From positions 1 through 62,897 of the IMG/VR virus record IMGVR_UViG_3300025030_000106: a DNA stretch of 62,897 nucleotides. The stretch is one strand, 5' to 3'. Every line of letters begins with the position of its first letter. Position 1 is the first letter of the stretch. The notes beneath the pieces are model-generated. The model saw nothing but the letters and a program-made list of their open reading frames with translations, was not told where the DNA came from and ran no database searches. This DNA comes from a virus. Shown here piece by piece: positions 8,127 to 62,897 of the stretch. The translations under genes and the position numbers were made by a program.

Positions 8127-8568
8127 CGCTGATCCTCTGGACCGTGGGGGCTTTACAAACTTTGGGCTCTCTGAGAAACAGTACCCTGACCTCGACTTGA
8201 AGAATATTACTCGGGAGCAGGCGCTGGAGATCTACTATCTTGACTACTGGCTCAAGCAACAGTGCCACATGTTCTTGTCGCCCATCGCCGTCGCTCTGTT
8301 CGACTCCTCGGTGAACTGTGGCCCGGGCACGGCCGCCAAGTGGCTGCAGAAGTCAATCAACCAAGGGAACAACTTTCTCAACGTCGACGGCAACGTCGGG
8401 CCCAAAACGATCTTGGCGTCAACCGGCCCCCCGCCGTATCGAGTAGCCGGGGGGCTGATCGGGTACCGAGTGAGTCACTATGCTGACCTGCTGGACCGGT
8501 ACCCGGAGCAAGTGCGGTTTATCAAAGGCTGGAACCGCCGAGCGGGCCGGCTGTTGAATTATATTTGA
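8062..8568 (+). CDS. Endolysin, N-acetylmuramidase (glycoside hydrolase 108 type)
   Basis: 168 residues from ATG 8062 behind AGGAGA. The N-terminus carries the GH108 signature FQEEGG ... DPLDRGGFTNFGLS, with Glu18 the expected catalytic acid. The second half (NCGPGTAAKWLQ ... DGNVGPKTI) is the peptidoglycan-binding-3-like part typical of this family. It cleaves the glycan strand of peptidoglycan. There is no signal peptide, so release by the holin candidate at 5340 is expected. It is the last plus-strand gene of this block and overlaps the converging minus gene by 10 bases. Confidence 0.88.
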   Translation: MNFPETFLFAMVFLFQEEGGTNADPLDRGGFTNFGLSEKQYPDLDLKNITREQALEIYYLDYWLKQQCHMFLSPIAVALFDSSVNCGPGTAAKWLQKSINQGNNFLNVDGNVGPKTILASTGPPPYRVAGGLIGYRVSHYADLLDRYPEQVRFIKGWNRRAGRLLNYI

Positions 8569-8747
8569 GGCAGCTTTCCAGACTGCCGGATCTTGTTGGC
8601 TTTCTTCTTGGCCAGCTTGTAGACCCTGCGCCCGTCGCTGGCGACGATTTGTAACGTCCGTGGATGCCGGAACCTCTTAGGGTCGTCGACGTTGACGTTG
8701 ACGTCTCGGAGGGCCTTGCGCAGTTTCTTAATTGATTTCCCGCTCAT
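8559..8747 (-). CDS. Small basic protein carrying the GACGTT hexamer repeat in its coding sequence
   Basis: 62 residues from ATG 8747 (SD GGAGGC). A run of GACGTT/GACGTC units encodes RDVNVNVDDP. The C-terminal half is Lys/Arg-rich (KLAKKKANKIRQ), so it may bind nucleic acid. It is the last gene of the long minus block and converges on the endolysin. Confidence 0.65.
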   Translation of the reverse strand: MSGKSIKKLRKALRDVNVNVDDPKRFRHPRTLQIVASDGRRVYKLAKKKANKIRQSGKLPQI

Positions 8748-8911
8748 CGCTTTGCCTCCTGCATCGCTTTCATAATCTTCAGCATCTCGCCAGCTTTCTT
8801 CATCCGTGCTTGGTTGAACGCCGACGTGATCATAAAGGTACACATATAGAGCCAGGCCGGTACCAAGATAAAGAGCCCCAACACAAAGGCCACGAATTCA
8901 TACCATTCCAT
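8744..8911 (-). CDS. Small single-span membrane protein
   Basis: 55 residues, starting MEWYEFVAFVLGLFILVPAW, then an amphipathic charged tail rich in Met, Lys and Ala. The start overlaps the previous stop (TAATG) and the stop overlaps the next ATG, giving strong positional support. Function unknown. Confidence 0.6.
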   Translation of the reverse strand: MEWYEFVAFVLGLFILVPAWLYMCTFMITSAFNQARMKKAGEMLKIMKAMQEAKR

Positions 8912-9165
8912 TATTTGATCCTCACAGTTTTTGGGTCAGTGTACCTCCCGGCGTCGAGAAGATCTATGATCTCCCGAGCTTTGGTATACACAGGCTCAGG
9001 ATCAGACGTCAGCCCACGAACTCTGACCAGGACCTTTCCTCTTTTTGTCCCCTTCCCGCTGGACTTTTTCAAAATTGGGAAGACCCCAACAGAAAAAGTC
9101 TCCGAGTTAAAGGGCTCTTTGCCAGGCGTCCAGCTACCGTCAAACCCATGAAGAATCTTTTCCAT
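8911..9165 (-). CDS. Hypothetical protein
   Basis: 84 residues from ATG 9165; an in-frame ATG at 9180 is the alternative. Basic middle (KKSSGKGTKRGKVLVRVRG). No family recognised. It overlaps the DNA-binding gene upstream. Confidence 0.6.
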   Translation of the reverse strand: MEKILHGFDGSWTPGKEPFNSETFSVGVFPILKKSSGKGTKRGKVLVRVRGLTSDPEPVYTKAREIIDLLDAGRYTDPKTVRIK

Positions 9166-9640
9166 ACATCCGCCTCTCATATTTGGTTGGTTCAGGGATC
9201 CGGCTCAGGTTGTGATCCCGAGGCCGGCCTTTCAGGTTTCCCCAGTTTGATTTCATTTCCAGCTTGTCTTGGTACTCTTTCAGGTTATTCTCGACGAGCT
9301 TCCCGACGATCCACGTCCTGGGGTTGTCGGGCCCGTGCTTGTGCAGTCTCTTAGCAAATGACGGGACAGAGACCTGAAGCTTCTTAGCACAGTAAGCGTA
9401 TGTCTGGAGGCCCCACTCAGGGGTCTGTACCGTCCGGGTGGCCAGGGGTTCACGGGAACTATATTCTCGCAACTTGGTGTACCGATCCCAAAGCGGCCGG
9501 CCGTCGGTTACCCACCGGCACATCACCGGCCCGGTCACGCCGACAATATCAGCGGCAGCCTGCCGGGTTGTTTCGCCAGACCTTATCTGCTCTTCCAACG
9601 TGTTCAGGATTTCTTTTGTCAGCCTGCGATTCAGCTTCAT
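9140..9640 (-). CDS. Helix-turn-helix DNA-binding protein
   Basis: 166 residues. The N-terminus RRLTKEILNTLEEQIRSG and TRQAAADIVGVTGPVMCRWV reads as a helix-turn-helix like those of terminase small subunits and transposase-type DNA binders. The C-terminus is basic. It might regulate this block or bind phage DNA. It lies far from the large terminase, so I do not call it terS. Confidence 0.6.
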   Translation of the reverse strand: MKLNRRLTKEILNTLEEQIRSGETTRQAAADIVGVTGPVMCRWVTDGRPLWDRYTKLREYSSREPLATRTVQTPEWGLQTYAYCAKKLQVSVPSFAKRLHKHGPDNPRTWIVGKLVENNLKEYQDKLEMKSNWGNLKGRPRDHNLSRIPEPTKYERRMYGKDSSWV

Positions 9641-9649
9641 CACCCCTCC

Positions 9650-12717: not shown

Positions 12718-13901
12718 TCGCAGCATCCTTCTGTAAAGTTATTACCACACACCGGGCAGACGCCGAGGTCGACTTTGAGGGCCTCATAGGCCTCTTCAGC
12801 ATCAACCAGAGCAAGCTCGGCAGCCTTCAATTTTCCCTGCCATTTATCAACAGCGACCAGGGCGCCACGCAGGGTGGATCTGCCGGCGGTGAGGTCGCGT
12901 TTCTTGATCTCGAAGCCGGCGACGTCGGGCATGACGTCAACGTCAGGCAGGACGTCGAGTTTCTCTTGAAGTTGGGCGATCCGTTGACGTGCATCAACAA
13001 GGTTCTTTCGCGCCAGTTCTACCACGGCACGAGTCTCACAAAGGTCAATCCCGACCTCAACGTCGGAGATACTGATCTCAGGGAATTTCTCAATAACCTG
13101 CTGCAAGACGTCAACCCGGTCAACGGCGTTCATCAGGGCAGTGCCCTGGGCAAAGAGATCATCACGACGTTGCTGTTGGGCGAGGATGTCTTCGATATAT
13201 GTCAATCCTGACATATCTGGAAACTGGTCCAGTTCAGAGCTAATGTCGGTGATAGTGCCGATGACCCCAATGAGACTCTCTTTTGTCGATGAGAGCCTAT
13301 CATAGGCTTCCTGCAGCCCAACCCCCTGGTCAACTAGTTTCTTCGCCTCAGCGACCCACTGCAGCCCGTCCAGCTGGTCGTTGATCCCAGTGATTGACAT
13401 CTTGATGACGTTGACGTTGCCGTCGGCGTCTCGCACAAGAGCATTTACGGTCTTTAACGACTCATCCATGATACTCAGGTCAGCAACCTCGTTCAGGCGC
13501 TTGGCCACATTCCCTCCGGTTTCATCCAAGAGAAAATAATGGGGATGCTGCCACTGGCAGTTGTCCAGAGTGACCCCATGGAACTTGCTGACCTCGGCAG
13601 GGACGTCGGCCTTGATCGCTTTGAAGACGTCGCCGTTGAACTGGTACTGGTTCACCTTTGGACCTCGCTCCCGGATCAGGACGTCGCCAGTGTCGTAGGT
13701 CAGGGTAACCCGGGTCGTGCCCTTGCGGTCCAGCATAAAGTTGCCCTTGGGCGCCCGGTTGAAGAATACCCACCGTAACGCCCGGACCAACGATGATTTC
13801 CCAGAGTCGCTAGAGCCAGTGATCAGAGTGATCGCGTCAAGCTCAAGCTCGGTGTGCTGATGGGCTTGAAAGTTCTCAAGCAGGATCTTGGTGAGTTTCA
13901 T
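12714..13901 (-). CDS. N-terminal half of a split SbcC/Rad50-like ATPase, ending at the zinc hook
   Basis: 395 residues. Starts as a canonical SMC/Rad50 N-terminus: LTKILLENFQAHQHTELEL then Walker A GSSDSGKSS (Lys35). A coiled coil runs to the end, where CPVCGNNF (Cys382, Cys385) is the zinc-hook CxxC, and the protein stops 10 residues later. A full SbcC would turn back here and reach Walker B; that half is a separate gene at 9650-10267. The split at the hook looks functional, since both halves keep all their motifs. Confidence 0.85.
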   Translation of the reverse strand: MKLTKILLENFQAHQHTELELDAITLITGSSDSGKSSLVRALRWVFFNRAPKGNFMLDRKGTTRVTLTYDTGDVLIRERGPKVNQYQFNGDVFKAIKADVPAEVSKFHGVTLDNCQWQHPHYFLLDETGGNVAKRLNEVADLSIMDESLKTVNALVRDADGNVNVIKMSITGINDQLDGLQWVAEAKKLVDQGVGLQEAYDRLSSTKESLIGVIGTITDISSELDQFPDMSGLTYIEDILAQQQRRDDLFAQGTALMNAVDRVDVLQQVIEKFPEISISDVEVGIDLCETRAVVELARKNLVDARQRIAQLQEKLDVLPDVDVMPDVAGFEIKKRDLTAGRSTLRGALVAVDKWQGKLKAAELALVDAEEAYEALKVDLGVCPVCGNNFTEGCCE

Positions 13902-19927: not shown

Positions 19928-22609
19928 TCAATTATGCCCTACCAACCTGAGCCCGGCATAGCACCAGCACCCTTTGTGATAGATGGCAGAGTACTTTTTA
20001 TCCATAGCCTCAACAAAGGCCTGTTTTTGAATCAGCCTGTTATGTGATTTCTCGCACCAGTCACTGTAAGCGTGGAAGATGGCGTCGCGATTAACAATGC
20101 TATTGACGTCATGGATAACGTAATCACCGTCAGAGACGAAGCCGGTCACCGGGTTGATCCTGATCTGCCACTGATCCATGATGTGATTATGTGTCTTGGT
20201 ATGCGTGAAGTGGTTTTGCTCCAGCAGTCGGGAGGCCCCCTCCAGCGCCCAGTTTAAGATGCCTGGGCCCTCGGCCTCGGCAACGATCCTGCCAAAGTCG
20301 CTGATCCTGTCCTCCTCGCTGATCACGGAGTCAAAACCCATAAACAGCCACCGTCGGAGCATGCCCTCGGAAGCGTCGTCGGAGTCGATGAAATAGTTGG
20401 AGGAGAAAACCTGTGAGCAGATCGGAACAAAAGAAAACGGCGCCTCGTAGAGACGCCGGGCGGAAACGAGTGAGCTGTCAACGATCTGCTTGAAGATCTC
20501 TCCTGGGATCTTTTTGCTCGAGGGCAGCTCCGGCACGAGGTTGAGCAACTTCCCGGCCATGCTCGCCCGATACGACCCCTCTTTCATATCAAAAGGCGAA
20601 ATCACGCAGACATAATCCTGCGGGACGATATGCCGGATGATATTGAACATAACGCCTTTGCCGTTGGCGCCCGGCCCCTTGAACAGCACTGCTTTATGAA
20701 ACTGGTAGTTCAGGATCCCAAACAGGATCGCGCCAAAGATCTCTTGCATGAGGTCGATCTGTGTCGGATCATTCTGAAATGCCCACTGCAGGAACCCGTC
20801 AAACATCTGGATAGAGCAGTTGGGGTCGGCGTCAACCTTAAACATGTGCCTGATCTTGTATTTGGAGTCATGCCTGGTCTCGTTGATATCCTTGCCGTTG
20901 ACGATATAGCAGGCAGAGGGCGTGGCGAAACAGGGTTGATGGTTGACAAAAAACAACTCGTCCTTGAGCTTGTCGTAGATGTGGACGGCAATAGCTTTAT
21001 AGTCCTGCTTCCGGGAGCACCTGGCCACGCCGTCAAAGCTGGAGATCATCCCCTGTTGCACGGCGTTGAGGTCCAGACTTTCCCAGACGCACTTGCCATT
21101 GTACTGGTAGACAGCCCCCTCGGCGCCGACGACATCCTTGGGCAATTGTTTGATATACAGTTCAGCAATTTGGTCATGCGTAAGGTCCTCGTCATCATCA
21201 GGAGGAACAAGGCCGGCAAGGTAGCCGTTCTCACCGACCTTGTTCTTAAGCTCTACAGCCTCCCTCTCCGCTTTCTTGAAGCCAGTCAAATCCTTACGCA
21301 GGACCGTGACGCTGACGCCAAGGGCGATCTTTAACCTCTCGAGTAATTTAGCCTCAGCTACCGCGGAGTCAGAGGCAGAGGCCACCATCCTGAGCCAGTT
21401 GTCCTCTATCTCCTTGCCTGAGGCGTTATTCAGCCACTCATCAAAGGTCGCCTCGTCATGCTTGAGCCTGAAGGTCCGTCCACCGTGGGCAAATGAATTA
21501 CAGATGATGCTGCCGTCTTCGTTGACGAAGATCTTGGCCTTTGACTTGCCGTACTCAGGTTCCAGCGGGTCCCGGAAAGACATTCCGACGAACGACTGCG
21601 GATCGTTCAGAATATCCTTGACGGAGACGTAGCCGTCTTCGTCGGTCTGGAGCCAATCCTGTGACAAGAGGTAGCCGTCGTACCGGCTGTTGATAACTTT
21701 CTTGGCGGTAACGACTGCCAATCCACCGGTCTTTGCGAGAGACTCGGCCTGCTTCTGGATATAGACCTTCCTGACCCGGGAGATCTCGTTGCTGAGTTCT
21801 GCCTTTTTCTTGGCGATCAGCACCTTGACCGGGGCGAGAAAGTTGGAATTGAGAAGCTCAACCTTCTTCAGATCTATTGTCTTCCCCGGGTAGAACTCCG
21901 TCTTTGGCAACTTCTGCGTCAGGCCCGACGTCAATTGGGCGCCGGCCTCAAACACCAACCGCTCCGGAGAGAATACCGCGGTGTCAAAAATCACCCGCTC
22001 AAGGGCCGTGCCGGCTGCCGAGATCATGATCCAGCCCAGCTCCTTGAACCAGCACTCACACTTCAAGGTGGTGATGAAAGGAACGAGGCCTTCTGGATTC
22101 TCGCAGGGGACATACACATGCTGACCTGTCAACCCGGTCAATTCTTTCTCCCCATCGTAAATGAACGACGACGACGACGGGCGCCACAGCATCGCCACGT
22201 CACTCAGCGCCGGATGCAGCGACCGCAACTTCGCGATCAACCCCTCTTTCGTCAGCGGCGTTTTGCCAGGCGGCGGGTCATAGTCGAAGTAGATCATAAA
22301 CCGGTCAGCAAACCTGAACTCTTCTTTCGTCCTGGTGATGGCCCCTGGGTGTTTATCCTGCATCCCGACAGCCACCAGATCACCACTTGAAACCGTGGGC
22401 ACTCCCAAAGTAATGGCTTGGTTTAAAGCCAAGCCATCCAGAATCTCCCCAACACTCTCGAAAGTAACGTCAACGCGCTCAACAGAACCTTCTGTCAGTT
22501 TGCATTTACTTGAATCTTTCTTGAGTATCCCCTCTTCGGTCAGTGAGAATTCTTTTGTCAGGATGCCTTGGTTTTTCGTGATGATCGAAAAACCTATTGC
22601 ATCTGACAT
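19928..22609 (-). CDS. Primase-helicase (D5/P4-type, SF3 helicase)
   Basis: 893 residues. The N-terminal part holds FMIYFDYDP, compatible with an archaeo-eukaryotic-type primase acidic motif. The C-terminal part is an SF3 helicase: Walker A GPGANGKG (645-652), then KLLNLVPELPS and SARRLYEAPFSF. The end (residues ~838-893: NRDAIFHAYSDWCEK ... CWCYAGLRL) is the winged-helix domain typical after D5-type helicases. It should prime and unwind DNA for the polymerase at 14832. Its promoter is probably the one before the HTH gene at 22806, which overlaps its start. Confidence 0.87.
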   Translation of the reverse strand: MSDAIGFSIITKNQGILTKEFSLTEEGILKKDSSKCKLTEGSVERVDVTFESVGEILDGLALNQAITLGVPTVSSGDLVAVGMQDKHPGAITRTKEEFRFADRFMIYFDYDPPPGKTPLTKEGLIAKLRSLHPALSDVAMLWRPSSSSFIYDGEKELTGLTGQHVYVPCENPEGLVPFITTLKCECWFKELGWIMISAAGTALERVIFDTAVFSPERLVFEAGAQLTSGLTQKLPKTEFYPGKTIDLKKVELLNSNFLAPVKVLIAKKKAELSNEISRVRKVYIQKQAESLAKTGGLAVVTAKKVINSRYDGYLLSQDWLQTDEDGYVSVKDILNDPQSFVGMSFRDPLEPEYGKSKAKIFVNEDGSIICNSFAHGGRTFRLKHDEATFDEWLNNASGKEIEDNWLRMVASASDSAVAEAKLLERLKIALGVSVTVLRKDLTGFKKAEREAVELKNKVGENGYLAGLVPPDDDEDLTHDQIAELYIKQLPKDVVGAEGAVYQYNGKCVWESLDLNAVQQGMISSFDGVARCSRKQDYKAIAVHIYDKLKDELFFVNHQPCFATPSACYIVNGKDINETRHDSKYKIRHMFKVDADPNCSIQMFDGFLQWAFQNDPTQIDLMQEIFGAILFGILNYQFHKAVLFKGPGANGKGVMFNIIRHIVPQDYVCVISPFDMKEGSYRASMAGKLLNLVPELPSSKKIPGEIFKQIVDSSLVSARRLYEAPFSFVPICSQVFSSNYFIDSDDASEGMLRRWLFMGFDSVISEEDRISDFGRIVAEAEGPGILNWALEGASRLLEQNHFTHTKTHNHIMDQWQIRINPVTGFVSDGDYVIHDVNSIVNRDAIFHAYSDWCEKSHNRLIQKQAFVEAMDKKYSAIYHKGCWCYAGLRLVGHN

Positions 22610-22806
22610 TCCTCTGTCCCCTTCACCCAGTCTTCAAAGTTACCTACCGCCCCACCAGTTGCCTCTTTGACTTTGATCAGCCCAGTAATATCAGGAACCC
22701 GGGAGAGTTCACACCAGCGGAAAACAGTCACCCGGGATTTCCCGACCCTCCTGCCGAACTCGGCTTTGGAGATAGCATGCAATTGCAGGTACTTAGAAAG
22801 TTTCAT
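22594..22806 (-). CDS. Cro/XRE-type helix-turn-helix regulator
   Basis: 70 residues. ISKAEFGRRVGKSRVTVFRW reads as a classic helix-turn-helix, followed by a short C-terminus like Cro-type proteins. First gene after a promoter and overlapping the primase start by 16 bases, so it probably autoregulates the replication operon. No good SD before ATG 22806. Confidence 0.75.
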   Translation of the reverse strand: MKLSKYLQLHAISKAEFGRRVGKSRVTVFRWCELSRVPDITGLIKVKEATGGAVGNFEDWVKGTEECQMQ

Positions 22807-24308: not shown

Positions 24309-24672
24309 CTGGGGCTCCCTTATGTGGCAGATCCAGCAGCAATGGTGCTTTGTCGTCGAGGTCAAAGACCTCCTTATTAGAAGCGATCCTCAAGAGATCC
24401 TCAGCAGCCTCCACCTGGGCTTGAAGGATCTTTATCTGCCGGCGCTTCCGGGCAGCATAGGATTCATAGGCCTGCGCTTTTGTTTCACAAGCCCACTTCT
24501 TATGGGCCTTGAGATTGACAAACTTCTTATCGCTCCTCCAACCGAGATCAATCCACACCCCGCAAGGAGTTCTCTTGAGGATCAGATATTCCTGAGGTTT
24601 CTTGTGACGATTCCAAGGATAGTCTCGCACATCGGAATCTTCAAACCGATAGAGATACTCGACCTTATTCAC
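24298..24672 (-). CDS. Conserved phage protein
   Basis: 124 residues from GTG 24672. The pattern LILKRTPCGVWIDLG ... AHKKWACETKAQAYESYAARK followed by a coiled coil is one I recall from many phages; function unknown. Confidence 0.7.
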   Translation of the reverse strand: MNKVEYLYRFEDSDVRDYPWNRHKKPQEYLILKRTPCGVWIDLGWRSDKKFVNLKAHKKWACETKAQAYESYAARKRRQIKILQAQVEAAEDLLRIASNKEVFDLDDKAPLLLDLPHKGAPDES

Positions 24673-24845
24673 GGCACGACCTCTGCCTTCTTGTTTTTCT
24701 TGGCCTCGAGCCCGACCTTGACCAGGACCGCGATCATGTTCGAAACTGTCCGCCCGTCCTCAATTGCCAGGTCCTGCACCTGTTTATAGAGTTCCCAGTG
24801 CATTGATACTGACGACGTCACCCTCGTTCTTTTTACCGTGTTCAT
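24669..24845 (-). CDS. Small ribbon-helix-helix (CopG/Arc-like) regulator
   Basis: 58 residues starting MNTVKRTRVTSSVSMHWELY and continuing with a helix, a GRTVSNM turn and a second helix. A basic strand followed by two helices is the ribbon-helix-helix layout of small dimeric repressors. The stop overlaps the next start (GTGA). Confidence 0.6.
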   Translation of the reverse strand: MNTVKRTRVTSSVSMHWELYKQVQDLAIEDGRTVSNMIAVLVKVGLEAKKNKKAEVVP

Positions 24846-33210: not shown

Positions 33211-34380
33211 TCATGAAGCTAATAACCCCTTCTGTTGATTTCCTGCTTCCTTGAAAGTAGTTTCGTTCCCAGGCAATTGCCCAAGAACCAGAGCTTCTCT
33301 CTCCACAGGCTTAACGTCCGGCAAACCCTGCCATAGTATATTTTGAGCTGCGTGAAGGTCTCTATCAATAGAGACGCCATTACAAGAGCACTGGAAAGTT
33401 CTCTTGTTTAAAGGCATGTCATGCAGCTGACCACAACTTATACAGAGCCTTGTGCTTGGGAAGAACCTCCCCACGACGTGAACTCTAATAGATTTATAAA
33501 CGAGTTGCCTTCTAATCTCAGAAAAAGAGGCGTCTTGGATACTCTTTGCAAGACGTCGATTCTTTGCCATTCCTGATGTATTCAGATCCTCTATACAAAT
33601 GTCTGAATAGTTATCAGCAAGGTATGACGTCAACTTATGCAAAACGTCTTTCCTGACGTTACTGATTCTAGCGTGCAGAAGGCCCAGTTTCTTTTTTGCT
33701 TTTTCTCGGTTACTGCTACCTTTCTTTTTCCTGGCCAGGGATTTATTGAGCCGTCGAAGTCTCTTTTGATATTTCTTTGTCGTCTTGGGATTCTCAAAAG
33801 TTATCCCGTTAGAGAGCGCTGCCAATTTATCTATCCCAAGGTCAACGCCAACGGCTGAATACACTTGGCTATCGCTACATTCAGAGCCGTCTGGAATCTC
33901 TACCGTGATAGACACAAACCAACCTGCTGCTTCCTTACTCACCGTTGCTGACAAGAGCCGGCCCGGGAGCCTCAGAGACTCCTGCATTCTTACCCAGCCC
34001 AGCTTCGGTATCTTGATGCTCTTGCCATTGAGCTTGAAGTTTCCGTTGTCAAGATAAAAAGAGTCTTGTTGACCTTTCTTTTTAAATTTTGGGTACCTTG
34101 ACGCCTTTTTGAAGAAGTTCTTGAAAGCTTTTTCCAGGTCAGAAAATGCCCTTTGTGTAGCACACTTTGTAACTTCATAAACAAAAGGAAACTCTGACTT
34201 CTTCACAACGTTGAATTGCTTATCAAGCCCAAAAGCAGAGGGCTTCTCGCCGGCTTCATATTGCCTTTGCCACTCCACCAGACCCCAATTAAAGGCCAGA
34301 CGTCGAACGCCACAAGCTTTCTTGAAGTAGGTAGCTTGCTTATTGTTTGGCTTTAATTTTATCTTGTGGGCTCTTTGCAC
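33211..34380 (-). CDS. tnpB: Complete TnpB-family RNA-guided nuclease
   Basis: 389 residues from GTG 34380, chosen because the second copy (61817) starts at the same point. All RuvC residues are intact: Asp180 (VGVDLGI), Glu264 (CIEDLN), Asp339 (SIDRDLHAAQNIL), with the zinc finger CISC ... CSC between. Family: OrfB/TnpB of IS200/IS605-type elements, RNA-guided DNA nucleases and ancestors of Cas12. No tnpA is nearby. It overlaps the zinc-ribbon gene by 41 bases and shares its promoter/operator. A guide (omega) RNA would be expected at the 3' end but I cannot delimit it. Confidence 0.92.
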   Translation of the reverse strand: MQRAHKIKLKPNNKQATYFKKACGVRRLAFNWGLVEWQRQYEAGEKPSAFGLDKQFNVVKKSEFPFVYEVTKCATQRAFSDLEKAFKNFFKKASRYPKFKKKGQQDSFYLDNGNFKLNGKSIKIPKLGWVRMQESLRLPGRLLSATVSKEAAGWFVSITVEIPDGSECSDSQVYSAVGVDLGIDKLAALSNGITFENPKTTKKYQKRLRRLNKSLARKKKGSSNREKAKKKLGLLHARISNVRKDVLHKLTSYLADNYSDICIEDLNTSGMAKNRRLAKSIQDASFSEIRRQLVYKSIRVHVVGRFFPSTRLCISCGQLHDMPLNKRTFQCSCNGVSIDRDLHAAQNILWQGLPDVKPVEREALVLGQLPGNETTFKEAGNQQKGLLAS

Positions 34381-34486
34381 GTTTCTGATTCCAGTATTTG
34401 CTTTTGCAGCTTGGGCATTTAGCCGGGCTTTTTGGCAACCTCGGGTACCACTGGTGACCACACCTGAGACACTTTAAAGTTTGCAT
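34340..34486 (-). CDS. 48-residue zinc-ribbon protein coupled to tnpB
   Basis: From ATG 34486 behind a near-perfect SD (AAGGAGGTG, 8 bases). MQTLKCLRCGHQWYPRLP then CPSCKSKYW: two CxxC pairs form a zinc ribbon, and the tail is basic (KRAKSPQDKIKAKQ). It shares a promoter with tnpB and its end overlaps the tnpB start, so the two are translationally coupled. The other tnpB copies in the window do not show this partner upstream. Role unknown; possibly a regulator of tnpB or a nucleic-acid-binding cofactor. Confidence 0.75.
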   Translation of the reverse strand: MQTLKCLRCGHQWYPRLPKSPAKCPSCKSKYWNQKRAKSPQDKIKAKQ

Positions 34487-43614: not shown

Positions 43615-44004
43615 TCAGTCCTCCTTTAGTTTCCAGATCAGCCATGGTGTGGTGCGTTCTGTTGTGAAACTCGTGCCACCATCTTGGAAGGTGTGCATAA
43701 GCTCTCTGTCAAAGTGGCTGAAGTGCCTGGGCAGCCATTGGGCGACGGCGTAGTCCTTGACGTAGACCTTGGCGTCTGTAGCCAGGTCGGGCAGGGGCGC
43801 TGTTTCTTTGGGGAGAGGGAACTCGTGCCAATAGAGATCGGGATAGAGATCCCGGTGATCAAATTTACCCTTAAGATTGTACCATCTTTTGAAATCTTCC
43901 CTAAAAATGACCTCGATATCGTCGACGTAAATGTTACTGATCACGCCCCAGCCCGACGTCACTGACCAGACTTTGTCACCAATCTTCACATTTTTGAATT
44001 TCAT
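43615..44004 (-). CDS. SH3-like hypothetical phage protein
   Basis: 129 residues. VKIGDKVWSVTSGWGVISNI is an SH3/KOW-like start found in several phage proteins. Function unknown. The start overlaps the stop of the repeat protein upstream. Confidence 0.65.
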   Translation of the reverse strand: MKFKNVKIGDKVWSVTSGWGVISNIYVDDIEVIFREDFKRWYNLKGKFDHRDLYPDLYWHEFPLPKETAPLPDLATDAKVYVKDYAVAQWLPRHFSHFDRELMHTFQDGGTSFTTERTTPWLIWKLKED

Positions 44005-44711
44005 TTCTCAACCTCCTGGAATAATTGATAAATTATGGAGTTAAATTCAATTCGAGCAGCGTCCCAAGCAGCATCCCGAGCAGCGTCCCAAGCAGCGTCC
44101 CAAGCAGCGTCCTGAGCAGCGTCCCGAGCAGCGCCCCGAGCAGCGCCCCAAGCAGCGTCCCGAGCAGCGCCCCGAGCAGCGCCCCAAGCAGCGTCCCGAG
44201 CAGCGCCCCGAGCAGCGCCCCAAGCAGCATCCCAAGCAGCGTCCCAAGCAGCGTCCCAAGCAGCGGCCCAAACAGCGTCCCGAGCAGCGCCCCAAACAGC
44301 GCCCCAAACAGCGTCCCGAGCAGCGCCCCGTAGGGATTCGTCAGCTGTCTTGAGGTAGTTTAGAACTACCTCCGGGCAGTTGGGACAGAGATGAATAATG
44401 CTCAGAGCTTGATCACAGGCGAAACGCCGCAGGAGTTGAGTGACATTGATAGATTGCAGGATAATGCGCTCGCGCCCGACCCATTTGTCGATAGGATTTC
44501 CATGCGAAATCATTTTTCCTCTGAGTTTGACATGGTGAAGAATGGCTCCTGGAGCAAATTGTAAGGCGTCAAAAGGTTCCTCGCTCATATGCAAACCGGA
44601 TTCGCAGGGGATGACAGCACCTTTGTGCCGGAGGATCTTCCCGACGTCAGGAATGGTTGAGCCATCTCGAAGGGTGTTATTTGTGAAATGCCAGCCGAGT
44701 TTTGTTTGCAT
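44001..44711 (-). CDS. DUF7666-like protein with ~23 tetrapeptide repeats
   Basis: 236 residues. The N-terminal ~130 residues (LGWHFTNNTLRDGSTIP ... ESGLHMSEEPFDALQFAPG) fit a phage domain I recall as DUF7666. Then residues ~133-223 are repeats of AA-[W/R/V/Q]-[D/G] coded by 12-bp units like GCGTCCCAAGCA. The array would form a long helix with a Trp/Arg stripe and an Ala/Asp face. The repeats are prone to slippage and likely vary between relatives. Confidence 0.75.
   Translation of the reverse strand: MQTKLGWHFTNNTLRDGSTIPDVGKILRHKGAVIPCESGLHMSEEPFDALQFAPGAILHHVKLRGKMISHGNPIDKWVGRERIILQSINVTQLLRRFACDQALSIIHLCPNCPEVVLNYLKTADESLRGAARDAVWGAVWGAARDAVWAAAWDAAWDAAWDAAWGAARGAARDAAWGAARGAARDAAWGAARGAARDAAQDAAWDAAWDAARDAAWDAARIEFNSIIYQLFQEVEK
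44040..44332. repeat. 12-bp tandem repeat array inside the 44001-44711 gene
   Basis: About 24 units of a GCGTCCCAAGCA-type 12-mer with changes mainly in the third and fourth codons. A second array of the same unit is at 45080-45310. Confidence 0.85.
44352..44370. repeat. Dispersed palindrome, copy 2
   Basis: AGGTAGTTTAGAACTACCT, one mismatch between arms, inside the 44001-44711 coding region. Confidence 0.6.
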
Positions 44712-45035: not shown

Positions 45036-45614
45036 CTACTTTGAGTCTGTGACCATTCTGATGAGCTGCTCACACTGTTTTTGTCGAGCAGCGTCCTGAG
45101 CAGCGTCCTGAGCAGCGTCCTGAGCAGCGTCCTGAGCAGCGGCCTGAGCAGCGGCCTGAGCAGCGTCCTGAGCAGCGCCCCAAGCAGCGCCCCAAGCAGC
45201 GCCCCAAGCAGCGCCCCAAACAGCGCCCCGAGCAGCGGCCTGAGCAGCGCCCCGAGCAGCGCCCCAAGCAGCGTCCCAAGCAGCGTCCCAAGCAGCGTCC
45301 TGAGCAGCAGTTAATTCTTCTGCAGTGGCCTGCCCGTGGGCAAATCGTTCAGCAACGTTGCAGGCAGCAATACTGCGCGGATCCGGATCTTTGATAAGTT
45401 TCAAGGCTTCTCGGGCACACCAAACTGCAAAAAGTCTCAGTGTCTTCGAATCAATGGCCTCTTCCCTGAGCACGACCCAAAGCCGATCCTCGATAGGAAC
45501 GTTGTCAGCTCTGAGGACGTCAAGAGCGGTCCCTTGCCAGTCCTTGGGGATGAACTTGATCGGGTCATAACATGGATCCCAAGAGCAAATGAGTTTGTAC
45601 GTTAACGTTTTCAT
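45036..45614 (-). CDS. Protein with ~19 tetrapeptide repeats
   Basis: 192 residues. The N-terminal ~100 residues (LFAVWCAREALKLIKDPDPR, SIAACNVAERFAHGQATAEE) are a domain I recall from phage proteins that end in Ala/Trp repeats, sometimes labelled putative immunity proteins. Residues ~102-177 are AA-[W/Q/R]-[D/G/A] repeats of the same 12-bp unit as the 44001 gene, with more Gln units. A short helical tail follows. Confidence 0.72.
   Translation of the reverse strand: MKTLTYKLICSWDPCYDPIKFIPKDWQGTALDVLRADNVPIEDRLWVVLREEAIDSKTLRLFAVWCAREALKLIKDPDPRSIAACNVAERFAHGQATAEELTAAQDAAWDAAWDAAWGAARGAAQAAARGAVWGAAWGAAWGAAWGAAQDAAQAAAQAAAQDAAQDAAQDAAQDAARQKQCEQLIRMVTDSK
45080..45310. repeat. 12-bp tandem repeat array inside the 45036-45614 gene
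   Basis: About 19 units of GCGTCCTGAGCA/GCGCCCCAAGCA type. Same unit as in the gene at 44001, which suggests duplication or gene conversion between the two. Confidence 0.85.
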
Positions 45615-46136: not shown

Positions 46137-46877
46137 TTATGAACGGTGAACAATGGTTTGCCGTCTGCCAGCAATGCCTCCAGCTCGTGAGAGAAATGAG
46201 TTCTCAGGTGTGTAGCCTTTGTTACAGTCTTTTCTGAGGACGTATTTCTTGCCGTTGTAGTCAGGATCAAAGACTTCTCCGAAGTTTGGTTGGGAAATGG
46301 CCCAACCGAGAAACCAGACGAAATCCTGTGCCCAAAGAGGATCCATTGAGGTTCTGAGCCGCTTGGACCTTTCTCTTATTTTAGTCCAGGTGGTATACAT
46401 TTCGTGCTTAGTTTTGCAGGTGTTAAAGATGTCTTTAGGCCAGGCACCCTTTTCCGGGCCGATGCAGCCGCAAGACAGAATTGAATGCGGATTCTTGGAT
46501 CGCTTGGTGAACCTTTTGCCACAAAGGCAGAGTCCGGTGTAGACGTTTTTGTGACGCCGGAGCTGGCTCCAGAAGTTGTATTTGATGTTTTTCTTCAAGT
46601 CTTCGGCGTACTCCTTTTGGAGTTCGATTCGCTGGGGATATCTTTTGCAGCCGCAACTTTCAGTGTGTCCTGAAACCAAATTTCGTCTCAAAACTGAAAA
46701 TGATTCGGAGGTGTTGCATTCACAGGTTACAAGCCAGGCTGTTCTTCCGAGATATCTTTCCACAGTGAGCTTGCCAAACTTCTTGCCAGTGAGATCTTCC
46801 TTGAGTGGTCGTCCCAAAAGAGTCTTATTTACGTAAGTGCTTAGAATATCTACAATTGGTGGTTTTTTTGATCCCAT
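46137..46877 (-). CDS. Diverged phage HNH/AP2-type homing endonuclease-like protein
   Basis: 246 residues. The first half has repeats of a zinc/AP2-like unit (GKKFGKLTVERYLGRTAWLV, CECN ... SGHTESCGCKR; LCLCGKRF ... SILSCGCIG). The second half, MYTTWTKIRERSKRLR ... GWAISQP ... RKDCNKGYTPENSFL, follows the phage HNH family (YxxWxxMxxR ... LxRxDNxxGYxPEN) with changed catalytic positions, so activity is uncertain. Confidence 0.68.
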   Translation of the reverse strand: MGSKKPPIVDILSTYVNKTLLGRPLKEDLTGKKFGKLTVERYLGRTAWLVTCECNTSESFSVLRRNLVSGHTESCGCKRYPQRIELQKEYAEDLKKNIKYNFWSQLRRHKNVYTGLCLCGKRFTKRSKNPHSILSCGCIGPEKGAWPKDIFNTCKTKHEMYTTWTKIRERSKRLRTSMDPLWAQDFVWFLGWAISQPNFGEVFDPDYNGKKYVLRKDCNKGYTPENSFLSRAGGIAGRRQTIVHRS

Positions 46878-47326: not shown

Positions 47327-47398
47327 AAAACATTATGCGACATTGGAGAAGAATTTTTGGGACTATTTCAGGAAAGTGAAAAACATTATGCGACATTG
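47327..47398. repeat. Pair of 19-bp direct repeats
   Basis: AAAACATTATGCGACATTG occurs at 47327-47345 and 47380-47398, 53 bases apart, in the gene-free region. Iteron-like or regulator-binding sites are possible. Confidence 0.75.
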
Positions 47399-47461
47399 TG
47401 GACGTTAACGTCGACGTCTTGAGGATGTTAGGCCGGCCCACTCGCCAAAAAATTTCTATGC

Positions 47462-47505
47462 TTGACAGGATGAAAAAAAGACTGTAACGTCACGATTGAC
47501 GTTAC
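47462..47505 (+). promoter_or_regulatory. Promoter with palindrome, unit 1
   Basis: TTGACA (47462-47467), 17-bp spacer, TAACGT. The -10 lies inside the inverted repeat GTAACGTC-ACGATT-GACGTTAC (47484-47505). A near-identical unit is at 47553. Transcription would run only to the terminator at 47514-47548. Confidence 0.5.
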
Positions 47506-47513
47506 AAAACACG

Positions 47514-47552: not shown

Positions 47553-47596
47553 TTGACAGGCTAGAAAAAAGTTTGTAACGTCACGATTGACGTTAC
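47553..47596 (+). promoter_or_regulatory. Promoter with palindrome, unit 2
   Basis: TTGACA (47553-47558), 17-bp spacer, TAACGT, and the same inverted repeat GTAACGTC-ACGATT-GACGTTAC (47575-47596), which overlaps the stop of the minus gene. Its transcript would be antisense to that gene. Confidence 0.45.
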
Positions 47597-47922
47597 AAGA
47601 CACGTCGACGTTTATAGCAACTTCCATTCATCCAGACAACTCCAGGCGAATCATCAGCCGGCATGTTTTGGGCCCTTCCTGAACCTGTCCATTGGTATCT
47701 TGTTTGCTCCCTTTTCTGTGCCAGATATTCCTCACTCACTCCTATATAGTGGCGTAAAATTCCACCATGTTGACGTCGATACTCCTGACATTGTTCTTTT
47801 GATTTTCCCTCGAAGATTGTCACACCGGCCAGGTCAACGAACCATCTTTCTTTAGCTGGTTTCGGCTGTCTGACATCCTCATCCTTGAAGGGCCAATTTG
47901 TTCCCAGCAGATTCCATGTCAT
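47593..47922 (-). CDS. Hypothetical protein
   Basis: 109 residues (SD AAGGAGA). ERWFVDLAGVTIFEGKSKEQ and a basic C-terminus. No family recognised. The hexamer array lies ~30 bases before its start. Confidence 0.6.
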   Translation of the reverse strand: MTWNLLGTNWPFKDEDVRQPKPAKERWFVDLAGVTIFEGKSKEQCQEYRRQHGGILRHYIGVSEEYLAQKREQTRYQWTGSGRAQNMPADDSPGVVWMNGSCYKRRRVL

Positions 47923-47951: not shown

Positions 47952-48045
47952 GTTGACGTTGACGTTGACGTTGACGTTGACGTTGACGTTGACGTTGACG
48001 TTGACGTTGACGTTGACGTTGACGTTGACGTTGACGTTGACGTTG
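47952..48045. repeat. Tandem hexamer array (GTTGAC)n, ~15.7 units
   Basis: 94 bp of perfect GTTGAC repeats (AACGTC units on the other strand). The same hexamer, as GACGTT or GACGTC, is scattered in many genes and regulatory sites of the window. It lies between the genes at 47593 and 48075. Confidence 0.97.
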
Positions 48046-48048
48046 CTC

Positions 48049-48065
48049 GGTAGTTTAAAATTGCC
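48049..48065. repeat. Dispersed palindrome, copy 4 (degenerate)
   Basis: GGTAGTTTAAAATTGCC, two mismatches between arms, directly beside the hexamer array. Confidence 0.5.
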
Positions 48066-48211: not shown

Positions 48212-48228
48212 GGTAGTTTAAAACTACC
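48212..48228. repeat. Dispersed palindrome, copy 5 (perfect)
   Basis: GGTAGTTTAAAACTACC, perfect arms, immediately before the SD of the 48075-48197 gene. Confidence 0.85.
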
Positions 48229-48258
48229 GTCTTGCACACTTTGTGCTATTTGTTACTT

Positions 48259-48336
48259 CCCGCCTTGCGTTTGTGTTATCGGCATTTCCGATACTCCAAA
48301 CGCAAGGCGGGCAGGGTGAACAATCACCCTGCCCGC
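48259..48336. other. Two adjacent long hairpins
   Basis: Hairpin A: CCCGCCTTGCGTTTG (48259-48273) with CAAACGCAAGGCGGG (48297-48311), plus an inner stem TATCGG/CCGATA. Hairpin B: GCGGGCAGGGTGA (48307-48319) with TCACCCTGCCCGC (48324-48336), loop ACAA. They share bases, so only one can form fully at a time. No T-run follows, so they are not ordinary terminators. A 24-codon frame from a GTG crosses them on the minus strand. Confidence 0.7.
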
Positions 48337-48348
48337 TCCCTCCTCTGA

Positions 48349-48365
48349 GGTAGTTTTAAACTACC
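48349..48365. repeat. Dispersed palindrome, copy 6 (perfect)
   Basis: GGTAGTTTTAAACTACC, between the stop of the 48369 gene and the double hairpin, followed on the minus strand by GAGGAGG. Confidence 0.85.
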
Positions 48366-48368
48366 CTG

Positions 48369-49448: not shown

Positions 49449-49477
49449 AATATACGACATCGTTACCAAGATGTCAA
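49449..49477 (-). promoter_or_regulatory. Strong leftward early promoter
   Basis: TTGACA (49472-49477), 17-bp spacer, TATATT (49449-49454) on the minus strand, ~45 bases before ATG 49404. Confidence 0.8.
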
Positions 49478-49491: not shown

Positions 49492-49717
49492 TCGATAACT
49501 TTTTTTTCTGCTCTTTGTTATTGTATAGCTTAACGTTAAGACGTATACCGCCTACAATGTGGTAGCTCGCCCAGGGCGGCCCACGAGGTACCCCCAGAAA
49601 CCTGACAACTTTTTCTGCAGAATGTAGCATAAAATTACACCAAGCCCGACAGTAACGTCAACGTCCTCAAGACGTCGGGAGCAGGAGCAGGCAAGACGTT
49701 CCCAGACACAAGACGTC

Positions 49718-49747
49718 TTGACAAACGTCAATAGAAACGCCTATACT
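49718..49747 (+). promoter_or_regulatory. Rightward late promoter with very short or absent leader
   Basis: TTGACA (49718-49723), 18-bp spacer, TATACT (49742-49747). The start codon of the next gene is only 8 bases after the -10 box, so the message would be leaderless if this promoter is used. Confidence 0.6.
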
Positions 49748-49754
49748 GGGCAGT

Positions 49755-50057
49755 ATGAACGTCGACCTCAACGCTGAAATAAACGCACAATTGAAGCGCT
49801 GCAAGGACTTGGCTGATGACGCCACGGAAGACGGCGAGAGCCCTCTCAGTCAACGCGCCGCCGCCCTGACAACGCTCAATAACCTGCTCAAAGAGATCAC
49901 GAAGTCGCAGTTGGAAGTGATCAACATGTCACGGTTGCAAGCACTGGAACAGACACTGATTGACCTACTGCCCGAGTTTCTCTCAGACGACCAGACACAA
50001 GAGTTTATGGCGGAATATGAGCGCCGCCTGACCCTACTGGAACATAGGGATGAATGA
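49755..50057 (+). CDS. Probable terminase small subunit
   Basis: 100 residues, highly helical (NAEINAQLKRCKDLADDATE ... TLNNLLKEITKSQLEVIN ... EYERRLTLLEHRDE), directly upstream of and overlapping terL by 8 bases. Small helical DNA-binding terminase subunits usually sit here. No HTH motif is obvious, so the call rests on position and size. No SD; see the promoter at 49718. Confidence 0.6.
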   Translation: MNVDLNAEINAQLKRCKDLADDATEDGESPLSQRAAALTTLNNLLKEITKSQLEVINMSRLQALEQTLIDLLPEFLSDDQTQEFMAEYERRLTLLEHRDE

Positions 50058-56619: not shown

Positions 56620-56646
56620 GCGGGCCCGACGTCGGGCCCGCCTTTC
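56620..56646 (+). terminator. Terminator-like perfect palindrome after the capsid gene
   Basis: GCGGGCCCGAC directly followed by GTCGGGCCCGC, a 22-bp perfect palindrome with GACGTC at its centre, then CTTTCTC. The T-run is weak, so it may only partly terminate. Confidence 0.6.
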
Positions 56647-61816: not shown

Positions 61817-62897
61817 GTGCGAAGAGCTCACAAAATAAAGTTAAAGCCAAACAATAAGCAAGCCACTTTCTTTAAGAAAGCCTGTGGTGTCCGACGTCTG
61901 GCTTTTAACTGGGGTCTGGCGGAGTGGAAAAGACAATACGAAGCTGGGGAGAAGCCCTCTACCTCTGGAATCAGAAAACAGTTCAACGCTTTGAAGAGGT
62001 CAGATTTCCTGTTTGCTTATGAGACTCCTGCAGGAGTAACTGCCCAAGCGTTTTCTGATCTTGACACTGCCTTTAAGAACTTTTTCAGAAAGACGTCAAG
62101 GTACCCAAGATTCAAAAAGAAAGATCAACGAGATGCTTTTCGATTAGATAACCAAAAATTTAAGCTTGATGGTAAAAGTATCAGGATACCAAAGTTGGGC
62201 TGGGTAAGAATGCAGGAGTCTCTCAGACTCTCAGGTAAGCTCTTATCAGCAACGGTGAGTAAAGAAGCAACAGGTTGGTTTGTATCTATCTTGGTAGAGA
62301 TTCCAGACGGTTCTGAATGCAGCGATAGCCAAGTGTATTCAGCCGTTGGCGTTGATCTCGGGATAGATAAATTGGCAGTGCTCTCTAACGGGAGAATTTT
62401 TGAGAATCCCAAGACGACAAAGAAATATGAAAAGAGACTTCGACGGCTCAATAAATCCCTGGCCAGGAAAAAGAAAGGTAGCAATAATCGAGAGAAAGCA
62501 AAAAAGAAGCTGGGCCTTTTGCATTCTAGAATCAGAAACGTCAGGAAAGACGTTTTGCATAAGTTGACGTCATACCTTGCTGATAACTATTCAGACATAT
62601 GTATAGAGGATCTGAATACATCAGGAATGGCGAAGAACCGACGTCTTGCAAAGAGTGTTCAAGACGCCTCTTTTTCTGAAATTAGAAGGCAACTTGTTTA
62701 TAAATCTATCAGAGTTCACGTCGTGGGGAGGTTCTTCCCAAGCACAAAGCTCTGTATGAGTTGTGGTCAGTTGCATGACATGCCGTTAAATAAGAGAACT
62801 TTCCAGTGCTCTTGTAATGGTGTCTCTATTGATAGAGACCTTCACGCAGCTCAAAATATACTACGGGCGGGTTGCCCGAACGTCAAGCCTGTGGAGA
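61817..62897 (+). CDS. tnpB: TnpB-family RNA-guided nuclease, N-terminal 360 codons (cut by window end)
   Basis: Starts at GTG 61817, 4 bases after the chaperone stop. VRRAHKIKLKPNNKQATFF leads the same protein as the copy at 33211-34380, clearly similar but with many substitutions in the first half. RuvC Asp (VGVDLGI), Glu (CIEDLN) and the third Asp (SIDRDLHAAQNIL) are intact. No zinc-ribbon gene precedes it. It sits where the tape measure gene is expected, so the element has inserted between tail genes. The last ~20-30 residues are beyond the window. Confidence 0.9.
   Translation, partial: MRRAHKIKLKPNNKQATFFKKACGVRRLAFNWGLAEWKRQYEAGEKPSTSGIRKQFNALKRSDFLFAYETPAGVTAQAFSDLDTAFKNFFRKTSRYPRFKKKDQRDAFRLDNQKFKLDGKSIRIPKLGWVRMQESLRLSGKLLSATVSKEATGWFVSILVEIPDGSECSDSQVYSAVGVDLGIDKLAVLSNGRIFENPKTTKKYEKRLRRLNKSLARKKKGSNNREKAKKKLGLLHSRIRNVRKDVLHKLTSYLADNYSDICIEDLNTSGMAKNRRLAKSVQDASFSEIRRQLVYKSIRVHVVGRFFPSTKLCMSCGQLHDMPLNKRTFQCSCNGVSIDRDLHAAQNILRAGCPNVKPVE
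62772..62897 (+). repeat. 126-bp terminal repeat, right copy
   Basis: Identical to 46-171 (see that entry); upstream bases differ, so it is a different tnpB copy. Confidence 0.85.

What the first reader, a model, noticed from the sequence alone, without database searches (positions are those of the whole stretch)
47952..48045. GACGTT/GACGTC hexamer dispersed across the whole window, with a ~15.7-unit tandem array
The array is perfect (GTTGAC)n. The same hexamer, alone or in pairs or triplets like GTCGACGTTGACGTTGACGTC (8686-8706 area), occurs in dozens of genes on both strands and in different frames, encoding DVDV/VNVDV segments, and clusters at regulatory sites: 47401, 47484, 47575, 49653-49730 and the centre of the palindrome at 56630. 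A codon-bias explanation alone does not fit intergenic copies and different frames. Candidates: binding site of a phage regulator or nucleoid protein, a modification or recombination signal, or an expanding selfish hexamer.
Basis: seen in the sequence. Interest (0 to 1): 0.68.

Follow-up and report, generated by a model that had tools for sequence, protein, structure and literature searches.

The report
Phased hexamer binding code in a phage

Summary
Confirmed, and stronger than described. The array (GTTGAC)15.7 is exact at 47952-48045. GACGTC occurs 81 times (15.7 expected) and GACGTT 106 times (29.6 expected). The excess survives a codon shuffle (141 coding sites against 63±6), occurs in all three codon frames, and is about 7-fold in non-coding DNA. 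Conserved-codon comparison with a second phage species (82% nt identity) suggests selection on the core bases.

New here: distances between sites are quantised. Within 60 bp, copies sit mostly at 6n or 6n-1 and almost never at 6n+3 (0 pairs in the window, 2 in the second species). The best-fitting period is 5.9 bp, detectable to about 100 bp. It appears in coding and non-coding DNA. About 100 other viral loci show none of this. Codon usage, protein periodicity and decayed tandem repeats do not explain it.

Best explanation: cooperative binding of a protein along the DNA in ~6-bp steps, with dense clusters at the late promoter region and in gene leaders. A conserved 58-aa ribbon-helix-helix protein (24669-24845) is the leading candidate binder; that link is unproven. 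The array is a lineage-specific expansion in a leader where the sister species has three spaced sites. The enrichment was seen only in this phage genus.

The parts
47952..48045 (.). Perfect (GTTGAC)15.7 tandem array, read as (GTCAAC)n in the leader of the minus-strand 109-aa gene, ~30 bp upstream of its start
   Evidence: identical in G001; the sister species has 3 spaced GACGTY sites in the homologous leader
47593..47922 (-). 109-aa gene of unknown function downstream of the array; 77% identical homologue in G003
49654..49760 (.). Cluster of 7 GACGTY sites (spacings 6, 11, 24, 17, 12, 34) over the leader and second promoter of the packaging operon
   Evidence: equivalent cluster in G003 (spacings 6, 6, 12, 17, 30)
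49602..49630 (+). Promoter-like CTGACA-17-TAGCAT; the CTGACAACTTTTTCTGCAGAATGTA stretch is shared with G003
   Evidence: comparison
49718..49747 (+). Promoter-like TTGACA-18-TATACT with AACGTC (49724-49729) in its spacer; G003 has TTGACG-17-TATAAT with AACGTC in its spacer
   Evidence: G003 promoter read by eye
49449..49477 (-). Divergent promoter-like TTGACA-17-TATATT facing the minus-strand genes
47401..47418 (.). Contiguous triplet GACGTTAACGTCGACGTC
47482..47507 (-). Inverted pair TGTAACGTCACGATTGACGTTACA; terminator-like hairpin on the minus strand
47573..47598 (-). Second copy of the inverted pair; terminator-like hairpin at the 3' end of the 109-aa gene
8653..8705 (.). Site followed by a contiguous triplet (spacing 35, 6, 6), inside ORF 8559-8843 (-); same arrangement in G003
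56628..56633 (.). GACGTC at the centre of a GC-rich palindrome after the major capsid gene
   Evidence: reading of sequence
12921..12956 (.). Example of a phased coding cluster: four sites spaced 12, 6, 12
24669..24845 (-). 58-aa ribbon-helix-helix (RHH_5/CopG-like) protein, leading candidate binder; TRVTSSVS strand identical in the sister species although the protein is ~58% identical
   Evidence: Pfam E=4.3e-9, above cut-off
22594..22806 (-). 70-aa Cro/C1-like HTH protein, alternative candidate binder
   Evidence: weak Pfam HTH_3, below its cut-off; 70% identical in G003
9140..9643 (-). 167-aa basic protein, HTH-like by eye, alternative candidate binder
   Evidence: charge +12; 70% identical in G003; no Pfam match

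Best explanation
GACGTY (core GACGT) is most likely the recognition unit of a sequence-specific DNA-binding protein that binds this phage's DNA cooperatively in steps of about 6 bp. Strong sites nucleate it; in-phase weaker sites let it extend. The dense contiguous or in-phase clusters at the packaging-operon promoters (49654-49760), upstream of the 109-aa gene (47952-48045) and at 47401 would act as operators, and the ~170 dispersed strong sites would give a looser genome-wide occupancy, nucleoid-like or repressive, over the early, replication and head modules. The 94-bp array is a lineage-specific slippage expansion of such a cluster. Shown here: the excess, the quantised spacing, the constraint on core bases, the clusters and their counterparts in a second species. 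Inferred: that a protein reads the sites, that it oligomerises, and what it does. Most likely binder: the phage's own 58-aa ribbon-helix-helix protein (about 0.4); other phage or host proteins share the rest.
For: Spacing comb: in the window, pairs within 60 bp are 48 at 0 mod 6 and 0 at 3 mod 6; nearest-neighbour gaps give mean cos(2πd/5.9)=0.71 against -0.02±0.12 under codon-phase-preserving jitter (0 of 20,000; z=6.2). The sister species gives 0.69 (z=5.2). Pair classes: same-frame coding 21/21 at 0 mod 6; non-coding cos 0.85; different-frame coding weaker, 0.27. One-mismatch sites are phased around strong sites but, in the window, not more than 120 bp from them. Controls: 30 related-phage loci (564 kb) give strong-weak mod-6 counts [189,35,34,148,34,30], cos5.9=0.05; other viral loci chosen for carrying GACGTYx3 give [615,149,157,598,169,166]. 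Excess over codon shuffle in all frames. Third positions in conserved codons are better kept inside sites than in the same codons elsewhere: 119/146 against 101 expected, z=3.3; ACGTCG ranks 1st of 606 hexamers. Site clusters at homologous regulatory places with different spacing. RHH protein present in both species with an identical N-terminal strand.
Against: No binding data. The binder is not identified; RHH dimers reported so far use longer steps (MetJ 8 bp, omega 7 bp), so a 6-bp step would be new, although successive dimers would sit on nearly opposite faces. The constraint signal is moderate; the per-context Fisher tests are p=0.025-0.065. Only two phage species carry the pattern. Many sites are coding, so repression by occupancy there is conjecture. 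The RHH homologue search found no further phage to test co-occurrence, and the tail module has few sites in both species, which could reflect module exchange. In the sister species weak sites far from strong ones still show a mild 5.9-bp signal.
Confidence: 0.6

Rival explanations
1. Expanding selfish or slippage-prone hexamer: replication slippage makes (GACGTY)n tracts that spread or decay, leaving period-6 remnants.
For: The 94-bp array is perfect and found in one lineage only; adjacent pairs at d=6 are common (29 in the two species); GTCGAC lies at 3 mod 6 from sites, as in a decayed (GACGTC)n.
Against: Middle hexamers of 12-bp-spaced pairs are not significantly GACGTC-like (mean mismatch 3.63 against 4.05, P=0.07). 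Spacings of 11, 17 and 35 bp occur inside genes across frames, which would need frameshifting indels. Core bases are constrained.
Confidence: 0.15
2. Codon pairing or amino-acid pattern: Asp-Val pairs and beta-strand alternation produce GAC GTC at 6-bp steps.
For: 49 of 71 coding GACGTC are codon-aligned Asp-Val; same-frame pairs dominate; a weak tendency in the same direction exists in control phages for strong-strong pairs (30 against 16).
Against: Excess in other frames and in non-coding DNA; the comb persists in non-coding and, more weakly, different-frame pairs; control phages show similar counts at 0 and 3 mod 6 for strong-weak pairs (189/148, 615/598).
Confidence: 0.05
3. Target of a DNA modification enzyme, a phage-borne analogue of HIP1-type methylated palindromes.
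For: The unit is a palindrome, dispersed, with no strand preference; several other palindromes are nearly absent, which suggests restriction pressure. A 538-aa protein with a methyltransferase-like domain and a ParB_N-like end is encoded in the rest of the genome (L023:17247-18863).
Against: No DNA methyltransferase family was recognised among the window proteins scanned (the PHROG list shows 25 of 28 families). A modification signal gives no reason for 6-bp phasing or for clusters at promoters.
Confidence: 0.08
4. Host property: the host's own nucleoid or regulatory protein, or a host mutational habit, shapes phage DNA.
For: The host is unknown; the TnpB gene gives no clear host (best matches 31-44% identity).
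Against: Tail modules of the same phages carry few sites, so the whole genome is not shaped uniformly. GACGTC O/E was 0-2.1 in the bacterial contigs sampled, but the host is not known to be among them.
Confidence: 0.12

Closest known systems
Omega (ParB) of plasmid pSM19035 and its heptad arrays
   Same: RHH protein reading a short unit; 7-10 contiguous repeats overlapping promoters; direct or inverted orientation tolerated; the repeats are the partition site (PMC9499535)
   Different: Heptad WATCACW with 7-bp step in six sites; here a 6-bp palindromic unit, ~170 dispersed strong sites in the window, phasing inside genes; no ParA partner was identified
MetJ repressor and met boxes
   Same: RHH (PMC5569661); consensus AGACGTCT contains GACGTC; two to five contiguous boxes at promoters (PMC12925634)
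   Different: 8-bp step, a handful of operators; the 58-aa protein had no PDB sequence match at all
phi29 protein p6
   Same: Phage genome-organising protein contacting DNA at a fixed step (monomer every 12 bp), with a role in the early-to-late switch (PMC10899789)
   Different: p6 reads a bendability pattern, not a specific sequence; step 12 bp
CdbA of Myxococcus xanthus
   Same: RHH protein with more than 500 sites across a genome, many inside genes; among the top fold matches of the candidate (E about 1)
   Different: Bacterial, c-di-GMP binding; consensus is a direct repeat one helical turn apart
Mycobacteriophage L5-type stoperators
   Same: Many repressor sites across one phage genome (PMC9283540)
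   Different: Asymmetric 13-mers in promoters and intergenic spaces, oriented with transcription; here palindromic, unoriented, also coding
HIP1 palindrome of cyanobacteria
   Same: Short palindrome dispersed at high density in genes (own knowledge; abstract of PMC6604393)
   Different: Bacterial, associated with methylation; no 6-bp comb known to me

Membership tests
Simple sequence repeat (microsatellite) | Head-to-tail perfect units | tested here: met
   Array 47952-48045 only: 15.7 copies, 100%
Simple sequence repeat (microsatellite) | Dispersed copies arise as remnants of tandem tracts | tested here: inconclusive
   Middle hexamers not significantly unit-like, P=0.07; 6n-1 spacings across frames
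RHH transcription factor (candidate protein 24669-24845) | RHH fold or profile match | tested here: met
   Pfam RHH_5 36.4 bits, cut-off 26; model has two helices after an extended N-terminus, pLDDT 77.7; fold matches include MatP, CdbA, Arc, CopG, AvtR, all at E about 1 or worse
RHH transcription factor (candidate protein 24669-24845) | Binds the GACGTY unit | not testable with these tools
   No DNA-protein docking or assay available
Omega/heptad-type operator-centromere | Contiguous short repeats at promoters | tested here: inconclusive
   Contiguous units upstream of the 109-aa gene, at 47401 and 49654; promoter prediction near 49654 only by consensus
Omega/heptad-type operator-centromere | 7-bp unit | tested here: not met
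   Unit and step are 6 bp
MetJ/met box | 8-bp step between boxes | tested here: not met
   No neighbouring GACGTY sites 8 or 16 bp apart
Stoperator system | Asymmetric sites oriented with transcription | tested here: not met
   47 GACGTT against 44 AACGTC outside the array
phi29 p6-like nucleoid system | Fixed step along DNA | tested here: met
   5.9-bp comb to about 100 bp, but the step differs from 12 bp
phi29 p6-like nucleoid system | Homologous protein | not tested
   No dedicated p6 search was run
HIP-type methylated palindrome | Cognate methyltransferase | tested here: inconclusive
   None recognised among window proteins scanned; a fused methyltransferase-like/ParB_N protein lies outside the window

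The most novel reading that the evidence does not exclude
The phage genus writes a 5.9-bp phased positional code into its genes and leaders, so that a small phage-encoded protein coats DNA as a filament with one two-fold unit per ~6 bp (alternating faces), nucleating at strong GACGTY sites. This would be a sequence-programmed phage nucleoid with a step not known for RHH or p6-like proteins.
Probability: 0.35. Interest if true: 0.85.

Novelty: new variant of a known kind. Interest (0 to 1): 0.68.

Why it matters
Spacing quantised at ~6 bp over roughly 100 bp, inside protein genes as well as leaders, in two phage species, is a strong sequence-only sign of a DNA-coating protein. It gives a named motif, ready-made substrates (the array, the 49654 cluster, 12- against 15-bp pairs) and a 58-aa candidate protein, so it can be tested directly. 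If right, it shows that a phage genome can carry a genome-wide positional code under its coding sequence, and it offers a way to find phage nucleoid proteins from spacing statistics alone.

Tried and rejected
(1) Codon bias: rejected by codon shuffle and frame distribution. (2) Beta-strand alternation: rejected as the sole cause by non-coding and out-of-frame pairs and by control phages. (3) Decayed tandem arrays: not supported. (4) The 47484/47575 inverted pairs as operators over TTGACA promoters: I first read them so; they are better described as minus-strand terminator-like hairpins. (5) The operator pattern TAACGTCANNNNTGACGTTA in other viruses: 14 stretches, about what I estimate for chance. 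(6) Family-wide property of phages with related terminases: no; GACGTC O/E at most 2.75 in the related loci of 15 kb or more; two short distant loci (L107, L108) reach 4.0 and 5.8 on 5 and 7 palindromes without a comb. (7) Host from the DNA polymerase or TnpB gene: no answer. (8) RHH homologues elsewhere in IMG/VR: only the sister phage and a weak partial match in a contig with 3 sites. (9) PDB sequence search of the RHH protein: no hit. (11) Three sites at exact 12-bp steps outside the array: none.

Full report
WHAT THE WINDOW IS. The window is a 62,897-bp virus record of a tailed phage. PHROG matches give terminase, portal, head protease, major head protein, tail protein, DNA polymerase, primase and helicase. 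The terminase is about 25% identical to those of 77-88 kb phages such as Lana and Seuss. A second record, G001 (IMGVR_UViG_3300025012_000103), is 99.99% identical over the shared ~39 kb and appears to cover the ~18 kb that the window lacks. G002 and G003 represent a second species, 81.8% identical over 32.7 kb of alignment.

The array 47952-48045 is perfect. GACGTC (81, expected 15.7) is the most over-represented hexamer under a dinucleotide model, with GACGTT at 106 against 29.6. Shuffling synonymous codons leaves 63±6 coding sites; 141 are observed, with excess in all three frames. That shuffle does not keep codon-pair bias. Non-coding DNA has 26 sites against about 3.9 expected, after one ORF that my gene set had missed (8559-8843) was counted as coding. 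There is no strand preference outside the array. Sites are scarce in the first 6.2 kb and in the tail module of both species.

SIGNS OF CONSTRAINT. Between the two species, codons whose amino acid is conserved keep their third base more often inside sites (119/146) than the same codons elsewhere (101 expected, z=3.3). The effect sits on the core: GAC 41/43 against 0.78 elsewhere, ACG 18/22 against 0.60, CGT 5/5 against 0.54. The final Y exchanges freely. ACGTCG ranks first of 606 hexamers by this measure. With next-base context controlled, the individual tests are p=0.025 to 0.065, so this line is moderate.

THE SPACING COMB. Distances between sites, array excluded, fall on 6, 11-12, 17-18, 24, 29-30, 35-36 and so on. 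In the window, pairs within 60 bp are 48 at 0 mod 6, 0 at 3 mod 6, and 31 others, mostly 5 mod 6. The best period is 5.9 bp (mean cosine 0.80 up to 36 bp, 0.74 up to 60 bp, still 0.52 at 5.98 bp up to 100 bp). Using only nearest-neighbour gaps and a null that moves each site by multiples of 3 bp, so codon phase is kept, the statistic is 0.71 against -0.02±0.12 in the window and 0.69 against -0.02±0.14 in the sister species, with none of 20,000 null sets reaching either. The period was chosen on the same data, but the null maxima (0.43 and 0.51) leave room for that. It holds for same-frame coding pairs (21/21 at 0 mod 6), for non-coding pairs (0.85) and, more weakly, for coding pairs in different frames (0.27). 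The non-coding set is dominated by a few clusters and, in that call, still included the 8653-8705 sites. One-mismatch versions of the word show the same comb around strong sites (mod-6 counts 125,29,10,31,8,75 for the two species, 7-48 bp). In the window they do not when far from strong sites (24 at 0 mod 6, 23 at 3 mod 6); the sister species keeps a milder signal there (cos 0.27). Thirty loci of related phages and the other viral loci chosen for carrying three adjacent GACGTY show essentially codon periodicity only. The control palindromes GCCGGC, CTGCAG and GGCGCC show no 6-bp comb.

READING. A step of about 5.9 bp that crosses reading frames, appears in leaders, is anchored on strong sites and is not accompanied by clear repeat remnants is best explained by a protein assembled on DNA in ~6-bp steps. 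I infer this; no binding was measured. The unit is its own reverse complement, so each step would carry a two-fold symmetric contact. A step of 5.9 bp turns about 200 degrees around B-DNA, so neighbours would sit on nearly opposite faces.

PLACES THAT LOOK REGULATORY. Upstream of the packaging operon, seven sites (49654-49760) lie behind a promoter-like CTGACA-17-TAGCAT and over a TTGACA-18-TATACT whose spacer holds AACGTC. The sister species has a matching arrangement with different exact spacings and also AACGTC in the spacer. The array lies ~30 bp upstream of the start of the 109-aa gene (77% identical in the sister). There the sister has three sites spaced 12 and 24 bp instead. So the array looks like a recent tandem expansion of a site cluster that was already in that leader. 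Both near-identical records have the same array length, so variation could not be tested.

WHO READS IT. A 58-aa protein (24669-24845) matches the ribbon-helix-helix family above Pfam's cut-off. Its strand TRVTSSVS is identical in the sister although the protein is about 58% identical. A model of modest confidence (pLDDT 77.7) gives two helices after an extended N-terminus, and its weak fold matches (E about 1) include MatP, CdbA, Arc, CopG and AvtR. RHH proteins fit by habit: they bind short repeated boxes cooperatively (omega, PMC9499535; MetJ, PMC12925634), a review describes archaeal viral RHH factors that may polymerise along DNA from a strong site (PMC5569661), and CdbA occupies more than 500 sites (PMC7156744). 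Two other conserved candidate DNA-binding proteins exist (22594-22806, 9140-9643). I give the RHH protein about 0.4.

LIMITS. Gene calls are simple ORF choices. Two species only. The host is unknown. The rival of a modified palindrome cannot be closed without native reads.

Noticed in passing
44055-44329 and 45085-45308: Imperfect 12-bp coding repeats (AGCAGCGTCCCA-like) in two neighbouring, partly similar proteins (44001-44711 and 45036-45614, minus).
   Followed up: no
33211-34461 and 61818-62897: IS605/TnpB-type gene and a second copy-like stretch at the window end; G001 carries matches to it at about 38.9-40.1 kb and 20.7-21.8 kb (88-91%), where an ORF matches a PHROG transposase.
   Followed up: partly
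48046-48062, 48213-48229, 48351-48367: Repeated GGTAGTTTTAAACTACC-like palindromes in leaders and gene gaps next to the array; also present in the sister species.
   Followed up: no
whole window: Several palindromes are nearly absent (GAGCTC, GTGCAC, ATGCAT, GCGCGC once each; CGCGCG and CGTACG never) while GCCGGC is 3.5-fold over-represented: possible restriction avoidance.
   Followed up: no
L023:17247-18863: 538-aa protein outside the window with a generic methyltransferase-like domain and a weak ParB_N-like end.
   Followed up: partly
48260-48336: Two strong hairpins between the 193-aa and 54-aa genes (GCGGGCAGGGTGA... and CGCCTTGCGTTTG...), with a counterpart in the sister species.
   Followed up: no
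47327-47344 and 47380-47397: Direct repeat AAAACATTATGCGACATT next to the 47401 triplet.
   Followed up: no
46137-46877: HNH-endonuclease-like protein, more diverged between the two species (54% identity) than most other conserved genes compared.
   Followed up: no
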